Origin: a virus
IMG/VR virus record: IMGVR_UViG_3300023106_000027
Coordinates: 1 to 25,307 of that record
Reading direction: 5' to 3' (one strand)
DNA: 25,307 nt
The notes below the pieces were generated by a model. It made no database searches. It saw only the letters and a program-made list of their open reading frames with translations, and had not been told where the DNA came from. Within the stretch, counting starts at the first letter, position 1, and every line of letters starts with the position of its first letter. Positions 8,363 to 23,226 of the stretch are shown one piece after another. The position numbers and the translations under genes were made by a program.

Positions 8363-8491
8363 GATTTGACTATAGGTCACACGCTTGGTAGTTTTTAGCA
8401 GCACGGTTTTTTGCGTGTGAAGCCACTATCTACGTTCCCCGAGTTCAAAAGTTAAAACCGTGAGACGGTTTTCGGTGAATATAGTCAAATC
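8363..8491 (+). ncRNA. 129-nt structured RNA inside the tRNA array, unknown class
   Basis: A perfect 12-bp closing stem, GATTTGACTATA (8363-8374) with TATAGTCAAATC (8480-8491), encloses two hairpins: CACACGC (8378-8384)/GCGTGTG (8413-8419), and AAAACCG (8454-8460)/CGGTTTT (8466-8472) with a five-base loop. CACGGTTTT in the first loop (8402-8410) is an exact complement of AAAACCGTG (8454-8462), so a pseudoknot or an alternative fold is possible. No tRNA arms, CCA end or reading frame explains it. It lies between tRNA-Val and tRNA-Met and would be released by tRNA processing. Confidence 0.6.
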
Positions 8492-8669: not shown

Positions 8670-8743
8670 GCCCCCAAAGCATTGAAGTGATGCACCAGTT
8701 TTGTAAACTGGAGAGTACGGAGCGTTACCGTATGGGGGCTCCA
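8670..8743 (+). tRNA. tRNA-Thr(UGU) with unusual T- and D-loops
   Basis: Acceptor GCCCCCA/TGGGGGC, anticodon stem CCAGT/ACTGG with loop TTTGTAA, encoded TCCA. The T-loop is AGCGTTA instead of TTCRANY, the D-loop has no GG pair and position 8 is A, so the usual elbow contacts are missing. Confidence 0.75.
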
Positions 8744-8832: not shown

Positions 8833-8903
8833 GCACCTGTCCCACGGACGGGCTGAGGTGTTCTAAGCCGAAAGTCTAGGTTCAATTCCTAGCAGGTGTA
8901 CCA
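8833..8903 (+). tRNA. tRNA-Arg(UCU)-like, irregular
   Basis: Acceptor GCACCTG/CAGGTGT, T-arm CTAGG/CCTAG with loop TTCAATT and encoded ACCA are good. The D-arm is shortened (GTCC/GGAC with a 3-base loop, or CCC/GGG) and the anticodon stem has only three pairs around loop GTTCTAA. At 71 nt it is short; decayed or specialised. Confidence 0.6.
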
Positions 8904-10221: not shown

Positions 10222-10663
10222 AGACAACAAGTTTGTATCTTTAAATAGTGTGTTGGTCGCCTAATAAGTTACCGAACGGCTAAGGCCCTAGACAGCTCGA
10301 AAGAGCAGCGAATTCACGGAGTAACCAAGGACGGGAATTCAATCTGTAGAAATACAGTGGATAGTGACAAACCACCTAAACCCAAATAAACTATACAAAA
10401 GATTTACTTCAGCGTACTAGTTCGGAGGTGGTGATATGAGAGACCAGGTGCGAAGGCATATTTCTCTCCCGACACATTTTTTGAAGATATAAGCAAGTTG
10501 CAGAAGAAAACATTATGACATACTCATTACAGCAACAACTCAATTGTAATCACTGGCCGCTAAGTTCAGATTACTTTACATTGGGCGCTTGAGTATATTC
10601 ATATATAGATAATTCTTAGACTGAATAAACCGAGCACCCAGAGAAATCTAGGTGCTCTTTCTT
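10222..10663 (+). ncRNA. Large (~440 nt) structured non-coding RNA, ROOL/GOLLD-like setting
   Basis: No convincing gene lies here, but the stretch is bounded by a promoter and a terminator and is rich in helices. GTTTGT (10231-10236) pairs with ACAAAC (10367-10372); inside it are GTTAC/GTAAC (10268/10321) and two GAAA tetraloop hairpins, GCTC-GAAA-GAGC (10295-10306) and CTGTA-GAAA-TACAG (10344-10357). Next come CCACCT/AGGTGG (10372/10426), a GAGAG/CTCTC arm near 10438, GTAATC/GATTAC (about 10546/10569) and the terminator, which carries a third GAAA loop. Large ornate phage RNAs such as GOLLD and ROOL occur beside tRNA genes; membership is inferred from size, context and architecture only. Confidence 0.6.
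10632..10663 (+). terminator. Terminator of the large structured RNA
   Basis: GAGCACC (10632-10638) and GGTGCTC (10651-10657) enclose AGA-GAAA-TCT, then TTTCTTT. A long, GNRA-capped intrinsic terminator. Confidence 0.85.
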
Positions 10664-10673
10664 TAACAAATCA

Positions 10674-10869
10674 AATCAATGACGGACAAGGCTAAACGTT
10701 ACCTAAGCTGCAAAGTATGGTAACACTACCAAGTAAGGTAGGGGAATATGAGGGAAACCAACACGATTGTGGGAGGCGTGTGGTCATTGATTATGTGGGG
10801 CTAACATTAAGCTTTTGACGGCTTACTTTGTAAGTTCGGACGAGGGGGCGGTACCCTCTAGCTCCACCA
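10674..10869 (+). ncRNA. RNA with a tmRNA-like 3' tRNA domain
   Basis: A perfect 10-bp stem AATCAATGAC (10674-10683)/GTCATTGATT (10783-10792) encloses hairpins GTTACC/GGTAAC and CTACC/GGTAG. After it comes a tRNA-like domain: acceptor GGGGCTA (10797-10803)/TAGCTCC (10859-10865), T-arm GAGGG/CCCTC (10842-10858), and ACCA. The 5' part GGGGCTA...TTTTGACGG and the 3' part TTCGGACG...AGCTCCACCA match the two ends of transfer-messenger RNA, and there is no anticodon arm. The mRNA-like domain between them is absent: only CTTAC-TTT-GTAAG caps the helix. The T-loop GGCGGTA is atypical. Could be a tmRNA relic or a trans-acting half. Confidence 0.55.
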
Positions 10870-10874
10870 AATAT

Positions 10875-10949
10875 AGGGTCGTGGTGAAATGGCTATCATG
10901 TCGGTCTCCAAAACCGTTGTTTCTGGTTCAAGTCCAGGCGACCCTGCCA
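10875..10949 (+). tRNA. tRNA-Trp(CCA)
   Basis: Acceptor AGGGTCG/CGACCCT, anticodon loop CTCCAAA, T-loop TTCAAGT, encoded GCCA. The outermost anticodon-stem pair is a mismatch. Confidence 0.9.
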
Positions 10950-11702: not shown

Positions 11703-11773
11703 TTTACTGATGAGTAAAAAAGTAGGTTCAATTCCTACGTCTTGGATAGGGCAGTCCCTAGCTCATCAGTAAA
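11703..11773 (+). ncRNA. 71-nt three-way junction containing a T-arm
   Basis: A perfect 12-bp stem, TTTACTGATGAG (11703-11714)/CTCATCAGTAAA (11762-11773), encloses a canonical T-arm GTAGG-TTCAATT-CCTAC (11722-11738) and a second hairpin TAGGG-CAGT-CCCTA (11747-11760). There is no acceptor pair, anticodon arm or CCA. It l ies between two Leu tRNAs and has the same outline (12-bp closure, two hairpins) as the RNA at 8363-8491. Confidence 0.55.
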
Positions 11774-11886: not shown

Positions 11887-12043
11887 CGGGGGCTGGCGAA
11901 ATTTTAGACGCAGCACGAGAATGCTTGTAGGGAATCACAGAACGTATTGCACGTTTTGCCTCAATCAGGCTCTCAGTAAGTTTCAGGCGTGTCGCTAGTT
12001 AGGAAAAGCTAGTGTGTAGGTGTGAGTCCTACGCCCCCGACCA
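11887..12043 (+). tRNA. Class II tRNA-like gene with ~65-nt anticodon-loop insertion
   Basis: A 157-nt gene with perfect acceptor CGGGGGC/GCCCCCG, D-arm GCG/CGC, variable arm CGCTAG/CTAGTG, T-arm GTAGG-TGTGAGT-CCTAC and encoded ACCA. The anticodon stem GCACG (11912-11916) pairs with CGTGT about 70 bases later; the loop between holds hairpins AACGT/ACGTT and GCCT/AGGC. The normal 7-base loop cannot be placed without removing about 63 bases, so an intron or an expanded arm is implied. The amino acid is unassigned; the loop's 3' end TTTCAGG would give UCA if joined directly. Confidence 0.6.
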
Positions 12044-22254: not shown

Positions 22255-23226
22255 ATGGAACAAGCACTAAGAATCCAAAAACAAATCAAAGAAATCTTTG
22301 GTGATGTACCAGTCAACTTGGTGGGTGGTTCTGTTCGTGACATCATTTTAGGTAAGCAGCCTAAAGACTGGGACTATTGCACACCGCTTGACCCAGACAC
22401 GATTGAACAAAAGATACGTGATGCAGGACGTAAGCCATACACAATTGGTAAAAAGTTTGGCACTATCGGCTTTAAGGTTGAAATTATCAATGACTATGAA
22501 CCTATGCTACGCTGGCACTCAAAGTTTATCTTTGTAGAAGTAACTACTTATCGTACTGAAAAGTATGACGGTAATTCACGAAAGCCAGTTGTTGAATTTT
22601 CAGACGATTTGATGCTTGACCTTTCACGCAGGGACTTTACTATAAATAGTATAGTGCTTCAAGATGACGGAGAATACTTTGACCCTTACGGTGGACGGCT
22701 TGATATTCTTGCTAAGAAGATTAAAGCAGTTGGGCGTGGTAAAGACCGTATTCTTGAAGACCCTCTACGTATGCTACGTGCAGCACGTTTCGCTGCTCGA
22801 CTAGGATTTGAAGTTGACCCTAATCTAATGGGCGTAATGCGTCAACATGCTCATGAAATTACACGTGTGAGTAAAGAGCGTTGGGTAATGGAACTAGACA
22901 AGCTTCTTGATTCACCAGACCCTATGTCAGGACTTGAGGTGCTATACAAGACAGACTTGTTGAAATACATGCTCCCTGAGCTTCACACGCTGCTTCTAAT
23001 GGACGGTAACTTCTTTATCGACATATCACATGGTATTCAAGAAGCAGAGACGCTAGACGAGAAATGGAAGGCTCTATTTAATCCTATTGGTTTACCAGTC
23101 GCACGTGAAGAAAGCCGTGGTGAATATAAATATCCAAAGCATGAAGTGATTCGTAAAGAATTGTTGCTTGGTATTTGTGCTCGTCTAAAGTTTTCAAATG
23201 AGCGTGTGAAATGTCTGGTACAATAG
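22255..23226 (+). CDS. cca: CCA-adding tRNA nucleotidyltransferase (class II), short
   Basis: A 323-residue enzyme that adds or repairs the 3' CCA of tRNAs. Class II signatures: LVGGSVRD (22-29), KDWDYCTP (37-44; Asp38/Asp40), EVTTYR (95-100), DLSRRDFTINSI (122-133) and EDPLRMLRAARFAARLGF (168-185). It ends soon after KFSNERVKCLVQ, where longer bacterial relatives continue for roughly 100 residues, so the tail is missing. It overlaps the next gene by 16 bases. Nearly all phage tRNAs already encode CCA, so repair or other RNAs are likely targets. Confidence 0.9.
   Translation: MEQALRIQKQIKEIFGDVPVNLVGGSVRDIILGKQPKDWDYCTPLDPDTIEQKIRDAGRKPYTIGKKFGTIGFKVEIINDYEPMLRWHSKFIFVEVTTYRTEKYDGNSRKPVVEFSDDLMLDLSRRDFTINSIVLQDDGEYFDPYGGRLDILAKKIKAVGRGKDRILEDPLRMLRAARFAARLGFEVDPNLMGVMRQHAHEITRVSKERWVMELDKLLDSPDPMSGLEVLYKTDLLKYMLPELHTLLLMDGNFFIDISHGIQEAETLDEKWKALFNPIGLPVAREESRGEYKYPKHEVIRKELLLGICARLKFSNERVKCLVQ

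What the first reader, a model, noticed from the sequence alone, without database searches (positions are those of the whole stretch)
10674..10869. tmRNA-like tRNA domain without an mRNA-like domain
The 5' piece (GGGGCTA...TTTTGACGG) and 3' piece (TTCGGACG...AGCTCCACCA) look like the two ends of tmRNA joined by an 11-13 base cap, with a correct 7-bp acceptor and 5-bp T-arm and no anticodon arm. A 10-bp stem-closed domain precedes it. A stand-alone tRNA-like domain could be a tmRNA decoy, a split tmRNA partner, or a relic.
Basis: partly seen in the sequence, partly recalled or inferred. Interest (0 to 1): 0.75.

Follow-up and report, generated by a model that had tools for sequence, protein, structure and literature searches.

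The report
Stand-alone tmRNA head in phage
A phage genome fragment carries, inside its tRNA gene cluster, only the tRNA-like head of the ribosome-rescue RNA (tmRNA) with the message part replaced by a tiny hairpin, probably a competitor of the host's rescue system; one such phage RNA (DS6A) was known before, and a search here found more than 30 others plus a separate, uncatalogued structured RNA next door.

Summary
Window 10797-10869 is a 73-nt stand-alone tRNA-like domain (TLD) of tmRNA: 7-bp acceptor with G3-U70, A73-CCA, GACGG/CGGAC, 5-bp T-arm, no anticodon arm, and a 13-nt hairpin where the message domain should be. It lies 5 nt before tRNA-Trp in a phage tRNA cluster. A covariance model built from 11 other phage TLD-only genes, window excluded, finds it at 41.2 bits (E 1.7e-8; best ordinary tRNA in the window 23.8). 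Scans of viral and bacterial contigs gave 34 distinct TLD-only genes in 17 clusters. Rfam's tmRNA model scores such genes above its cutoff in 17 of 18 phage contigs tested, with no second tmRNA over the cutoff. The window copy is derived (no GG in the D-loop, alphaproteobacterial-type T-loop GGCGGTA) and falls below Rfam cutoffs. The kind is known from one phage: DS6A's TLD-only RNA, and a similar molecule was reported to inhibit tmRNA in E. coli. Best guess: a decoy for host SmpB/AlaRS. A relic cannot be excluded. The 'stem-closed domain' upstream (10674-10792) is a separate structured phage RNA, unmatched in Rfam, found in about 30 other viral loci with covariation, never beside a TLD elsewhere.

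The parts
10797..10869 (+). Stand-alone tRNA-like domain of tmRNA (TLD-only gene), encoded CCA
10797..10803 (+). 5' acceptor strand GGGGCTA (G3 pairs with U70)
   Evidence: exact 7-bp complement
10804..10821 (+). D-loop (13 nt, no GG) and conserved GACGG
10822..10834 (+). 5-bp hairpin CTTAC-TTT-GTAAG in place of the message domain and pseudoknots
   Evidence: sequence; pairing is one of several folds predicted
10835..10841 (+). TTCGGAC, 3' strand of the conserved junction
10842..10858 (+). T-arm GAGGG-GGCGGTA-CCCTC; T-loop of the alphaproteobacterial/permuted tmRNA type
10859..10869 (+). 3' acceptor strand TAGCTCC, A73, CCA
10875..10949 (+). tRNA-Trp(cca), 5 nt downstream; the unit lies in the tRNA cluster
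10674..10792 (+). Separate structured phage RNA ('domain 1'), not matched in Rfam, closed by a 10-bp stem
   Evidence: (35.6 bits, E 3.1e-7)
10632..10660 (+). Hairpin plus T-rich tail upstream of domain 1; a similar hairpin lies at the same place in L020-L022

Best explanation
10797-10869 encodes a mini-tmRNA: the tmRNA head alone, its message domain replaced by a short hairpin. It is probably cut out of the tRNA-cluster transcript by RNase P and 3' trimming like the tRNAs beside it, charged with alanine through G3-U70, and bound by host SmpB and EF-Tu. Lacking a template, it would compete with host tmRNA for SmpB, AlaRS or stalled ribosomes and so damp tagging and trans-translation during infection. 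Shown here: the anatomy, the existence of the class, no SmpB found in the phage contigs. Inferred: processing, charging, SmpB binding and competition.
For: R1, built without the window, hits it at 41.2 bits, E 1.7e-8. 23 TLD-only genes not used in the model score 52-81 bits; ordinary tRNAs reach at most 32.5. The 34 TLD-only genes keep 7 acceptor pairs, A73, 5 T-stem pairs (33 of 34) and a P2-like stem with many compensating pair types, although the message domain is gone. In the scan that left the acceptor free, all 20 true loci kept G3-U70, including L104 with C4-G69. RF00023 scores such genes over its cutoff in 17 of 18 phage contigs, with no other match over the cutoff there, and in five of eight further loci. 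No SmpB was found in 43 phage contigs, so host SmpB would be used. [quoted passage not shown] 2009, not read here).
Against: The window copy is the lowest-scoring member and its score overlaps that of permuted-tmRNA 3' pieces (25-40 bits with R1), so the score alone does not prove the 5' half. Its D-loop lacks GG and is the longest of the set. It falls below RF00023 and RF04321 cutoffs. Its nearest relatives have no TLD, so selection on this copy cannot be shown. Its own fold is not exceptional (z -1.55). No expression or biochemical data.
Confidence: 0.5

Rival explanations
1. Relic: a decaying remnant of a phage-borne tmRNA of the alphaproteobacterial type, no longer functional.
For: D-loop without GG, longest D-loop of the set, lowest model score; TLD not found in related contigs.
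Against: All 7 acceptor pairs, all 5 T-stem pairs, G3-U70, A73 and CCA are intact, and a perfect 5-bp cap has formed. Random decay would break stems. The same MLD-less architecture recurs in 17 clusters.
Confidence: 0.25
2. Tagless rescue: Ala-TLD with SmpB enters stalled ribosomes and accepts the nascent chain, and the peptidyl-TLD drops off and is hydrolysed, so ribosomes are freed without tagging or proteolysis of phage proteins.
For: Keeps the features expected for charging and A-site entry. Mitochondrial tmRNAs without a tag frame co-occur with SmpB and are thought still to help with incomplete mRNAs (PMC11915505).
Against: The only reported test of a TLD-only molecule shows inhibition of tmRNA (PMC4131195). 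Without a template there is no known release step.
Confidence: 0.15
3. Acceptor piece of a permuted two-piece tmRNA whose coding piece lies elsewhere; the upstream GGGGCTA is chance.
For: The 3' half matches alpha_tmRNA (RF01849) at E 2.8e-7 and tmRNA_permuted at 31.8 bits. The T-loop GGCRGTA is that of permuted phage tmRNAs with plausible tags, such as L189, L197, L199.
Against: The strict acceptor plus GACGG has chance 2.5e-4. No 5' piece follows: tRNA-Trp begins 5 nt after the CCA, and the one GGGGCTG nearby, at 11889, belongs to a different tRNA-like element. No tmRNA called in the window.
Confidence: 0.05
4. Domain 1 and the TLD form one composite RNA.
For: They are 4 nt apart in the window, on the same strand.
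Against: Domain 1 occurs in about 30 other viral loci without a TLD beside it, and a domain-1 model finds nothing in 36 TLD-only loci.
Confidence: 0.04
5. An ordinary class I tRNA or a chance fold.
For: Weak thermodynamic z-score (-1.55).
Against: No anticodon arm; ARAGORN and the Rfam tRNA model do not call it; it fits tmRNA models.
Confidence: 0.01

Closest known systems
Mycobacteriophage DS6A TLD-only tmRNA (reported by Mao et al. 2009; cited in PMC4131195 and PMC11915505)
   Same: Phage-encoded tmRNA head with little or nothing else
   Different: Different phage; the window has an alphaproteobacterial-type T-loop, a 13-nt cap and sits in a tRNA cluster. The DS6A record was not held here, so no direct alignment was made.
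Permuted (two-piece) alphaproteobacterial-type tmRNA, RF01849/RF04321, as in marine phages
   Same: TCGGAC, T-loop GGCGGTA, CTCCACCA in the 3' half
   Different: The window has both acceptor strands in direct order, no intervening segment, no message piece
Standard one-piece tmRNA, RF00023
   Same: Acceptor with G3-U70, GACGG, GGAC, T-arm, CCA
   Different: No message domain, tag or pseudoknots; D-loop GG missing
Tag-less mitochondrial and CDS-less plastid tmRNAs (PMC11915505)
   Same: tmRNA reduced towards its TLD; two Mallomonadaceae plastid genes are only about 65 bp
   Different: Organellar, not phage

Membership tests
tmRNA (full molecule, RF00023) | mRNA-like domain with tag reading frame and pseudoknots | tested here: not met
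   13-nt hairpin between GACGG and TTCGGAC; no tmRNA called by ARAGORN or by Rfam at cutoff
tmRNA (full molecule, RF00023) | Score over the Rfam cutoff | tested here: not met
   RF00023 not reported at this site; RF04321 31.8 against 47 bits, RF01849 28.2 against 50 bits
tmRNA tRNA-like domain | 7-bp acceptor with G3-U70, A73, CCA, no anticodon arm | tested here: met
tmRNA tRNA-like domain | GACGG and GGAC junction sequences | tested here: met
   10817-10821 and 10838-10841; invariant or nearly so in the class, though partly demanded by the search patterns
tmRNA tRNA-like domain | T-loop TTCRA | tested here: not met
   GGCGGTA instead; the same loop is used by permuted phage tmRNAs
tmRNA tRNA-like domain | D-loop with GG | tested here: not met
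   ACATTAAGCTTTT; most of the 34 others keep GG, and so do permuted tmRNAs with GGCRGTA loops
Phage TLD-only tmRNA (DS6A kind) | Both acceptor strands and T-arm with the message domain replaced by a short stem-loop | tested here: met
   R1 built without the window: 41.2 bits, E 1.7e-8; same anatomy as 34 genes
Phage TLD-only tmRNA (DS6A kind) | Inhibits host tmRNA | not testable with these tools
   reported for DS6A-like molecules only (PMC4131195, PMC11915505)
Phage TLD-only tmRNA (DS6A kind) | Direct sequence match to DS6A | not tested
   record not held
Permuted two-piece tmRNA | 5' acceptor piece downstream of the CCA | tested here: not met
   tRNA-Trp starts 5 nt after the CCA; no matching 5' piece with GAC.GG follows
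Class I tRNA | Anticodon arm | tested here: not met

The most novel reading that the evidence does not exclude
TLD-only tmRNAs are a widespread class of phage counter-rescue RNAs, arisen or spread in at least 17 sequence clusters, that switch off host trans-translation by occupying SmpB, AlaRS or stalled ribosomes, and the window carries an alphaproteobacterial-type version built by rejoining the two halves of a permuted tmRNA.
Probability: 0.35. Interest if true: 0.8.

Novelty: new member of a known kind. Interest (0 to 1): 0.55.

Why it matters
One phage TLD-only tmRNA (DS6A) is named in the papers read, and the 2025 tmRNA database lists only 9 unpermuted no-CDS sequences among 97,179 (PMC11915505). 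Finding 34 more, most of them in phage contigs, turns a curiosity into a class, and makes 'do phages disarm host ribosome rescue with RNA decoys?' directly testable. The common gene finders handle the class unevenly: ARAGORN called no plausible tmRNA at these loci, while RF00023 recognises many of them. The neighbouring domain-1 RNA is a separate candidate for a new structured phage RNA family.

Tried and rejected
Nucleotide searches of phage and plasmid collections with the window region found nothing but the tRNA-Trp. TLD-only loci have no nucleotide relatives in the phage collection beyond tRNA matches. A made-up consensus TLD query hit named phages; the six examined did not contain TLD-only genes: five carry permuted tmRNAs by ARAGORN and Phage Phass-1 (L301) got no call. 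The first MAFFT alignment of all 34 TLDs shifted the acceptor strand, so the model was built on 11 with equal D-loop length. Beta-proteobacterial and clostridial hits of the genome scan fail the pairing filter or sit inside ordinary tmRNAs and were dropped. ARAGORN 'tmRNA' calls at L025 and L026 were treated as doubtful because the tags look implausible; L025 was kept in the set of 34, L026 left out. The possible tag reading frame in domain 1 (AKRYLSCKVW) was rejected because domain 1 recurs without a TLD. DS6A records could not be fetched.

Full report
OBSERVATION. The window is a 25,307-base virus record with 23 tRNA genes called by ARAGORN on the + strand. At 10797-10869 the sequence reads GGGGCTA-ACATTAAGCTTTT-GACGG-CTTACTTTGTAAG-TTCGGAC-GAGGG-GGCGGTA-CCCTC-TAGCTCC-ACCA: a 7-bp acceptor whose only wobble is G3-U70, a 5-bp T-arm, A73 and CCA, the tmRNA junction GACGG/CGGAC, and a 13-nt hairpin in place of an anticodon arm or message domain. 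tRNA-Trp begins after a spacer of five bases. ARAGORN and Rfam at cutoff do not call it. Given only 86 bases, Rfam finds alpha_tmRNA (28.2 bits, E 2.8e-7) and tmRNA_permuted (31.8 bits, E 1.5e-5) in its 3' half.

IS IT MORE THAN CHANCE. With the 3' half fixed, shuffling the 75 bases upstream gave a strict acceptor with GACGG at D-loop distance in 0.025% of 20,000 trials. Of 86 acceptor pieces with the same T-loop type, only one has a complete 7-bp acceptor upstream, and that one is a TLD-only gene.

A CLASS OF TLD-ONLY GENES. Pattern scans of viral contigs and bacterial contigs found many loci with the same anatomy. After pairing filters, 34 distinct genes of 68-83 nt remain, in 17 clusters at 80% identity: 30 from viral contigs and 4 from bacterial MAG contigs (L122 twice, L124, L163). 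All have 7 acceptor pairs and A73, 33 have 5 T-stem pairs, and the linker of 15-29 nt mostly folds as a P2-like stem capped by a loop. Stems vary in sequence while staying paired. Most scans demanded G3-U70 and the filter selected for pairing, so these counts are partly by construction; the scan left the acceptor free, and all 20 true loci in it still keep G3-U70, one with a C4-G69 pair. Rfam's RF00023 scores these about 80-nt genes over its cutoff in 17 of 18 phage contigs, and nothing else in those contigs passes the cutoff; five of eight further loci also pass. PF01668 (SmpB) was absent from 43 phage contigs, many of them fragments, while the control genomes rang. Seven of 35 genes (window included) lie within 300 nt of a tRNA. 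One member (L046/L137) lies on a contig titled Prochlorococcus.

THE WINDOW COPY AS A MEMBER. Model R1, built from 11 TLD-only genes without the window, finds the window at 41.2 bits, E 1.7e-8; the next hits in the window are ordinary tRNAs at 23.8 and below. TLD-only genes outside the model score 52-81, ordinary tRNAs up to 32.5, permuted-tmRNA 3' pieces mostly 25-40. So the score shows tmRNA kinship, and the 5' half rests on the acceptor match. The copy is derived: 13-nt D-loop without GG, and T-loop GGCGGTA. That T-loop is typical of permuted phage tmRNAs, several of which ARAGORN calls with tags such as ANDNTFAGADRVAA. An alphaproteobacterial-type ancestor whose halves were rejoined is possible (inference). 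The related contigs (L020-L022 with RecT 57-58% identical, and others found through domain 1) show no TLD.

THE UPSTREAM DOMAIN IS A DIFFERENT RNA. The stem-closed domain 10674-10792 matches a pattern found in 33 viral loci. In 28 of them, window excluded, pair 14-144 forms in 27 with six pair types, pair 22-139 in all 28 with A-U and G-C, and an inner helix covaries. Model R2 built from these finds the window at 35.6 bits, E 3.1e-7. It finds nothing in 36 TLD-only loci. The RNA appears inside tRNA clusters and between protein genes. Rfam 15 searches of the window and of several of these loci gave no matching family. Its function is unknown to me; the position suggests an independent transcript or leader.

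MECHANISM. Most likely the TLD is processed with the tRNAs, charged with alanine via G3-U70, and competes with host tmRNA for SmpB, AlaRS or stalled ribosomes. The reviewed literature reports that a DS6A-like TLD-only molecule, whether or not chargeable, strongly inhibits tmRNA, perhaps by titrating SmpB (PMC4131195, PMC11915505; the original, Mao et al. 2009, could not be read here). The phage carries its own tRNA nucleotidyltransferase (window 22255-23226). Processing, charging, binding and competition are inferred. Rivals are relic, tagless rescue and permuted-piece readings, listed separately.

NOVELTY. The kind is known (DS6A); the window is a new and derived member. The number of further members and the neighbouring RNA are the new parts. 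Literature searches cover open-licence papers only and showed no report of such a wide class.

Noticed in passing
window 10674-10792: Structured phage RNA not matched in Rfam 15, with covariation across 28 viral loci; pattern GACGGACRAGGC ... GGGNRGCG ... GGTC.
   Followed up: partly
L020 2480-2700, also L021, L022, L083, L074, L075, L088: Related contigs carry a second conserved RNA-like stretch between domain 1 and the next tRNA (tRNA-Trp in most) (GGTTGTACGAC ... GGCTCAT..AGACTACC); no Rfam match for the L020 copy.
   Followed up: no
window 11887-12043: 157-nt tRNA-like element: 7 Watson-Crick acceptor pairs CGGGGGC/GCCCCCG, T-arm GTAGG-TGTGAGT-CCTAC, ACCA; not called by ARAGORN or Rfam; maybe an interrupted tRNA.
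   Followed up: partly
window 11703-11773: 12-bp perfect stem enclosing a T-arm-like hairpin GTAGGTTCAATTCCTAC, fold z-score -4.97.
   Followed up: no
window 8363-8491: 12-bp perfect stem closing a 105-nt domain between tRNA-Val and tRNA-Met, z-score -3.11.
   Followed up: no
window 8670-8743: tRNA-Thr(UGU)-like gene missed by ARAGORN, T-loop AGCGTTA, D-loop without GG.
   Followed up: partly
window 8833-8903: Divergent tRNA-like gene at the place where relatives have tRNA-Arg(tct); missed by ARAGORN.
   Followed up: no
L096 3491-3558: DUF3800-VIII RNA (Rfam RF03075) close to a copy of domain 1.
   Followed up: no
L122 4393-4473 and 5098-5178: Two TLD-only genes in one Victivallales MAG contig, with T-loops ATTGATA and ATCGTTA.
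   Followed up: no
L181-L297: Many viral contigs carry tmRNA 3' pieces with T-loop GGCRGNA; several are permuted tmRNAs with clear tags, others get no ARAGORN call.
   Followed up: partly
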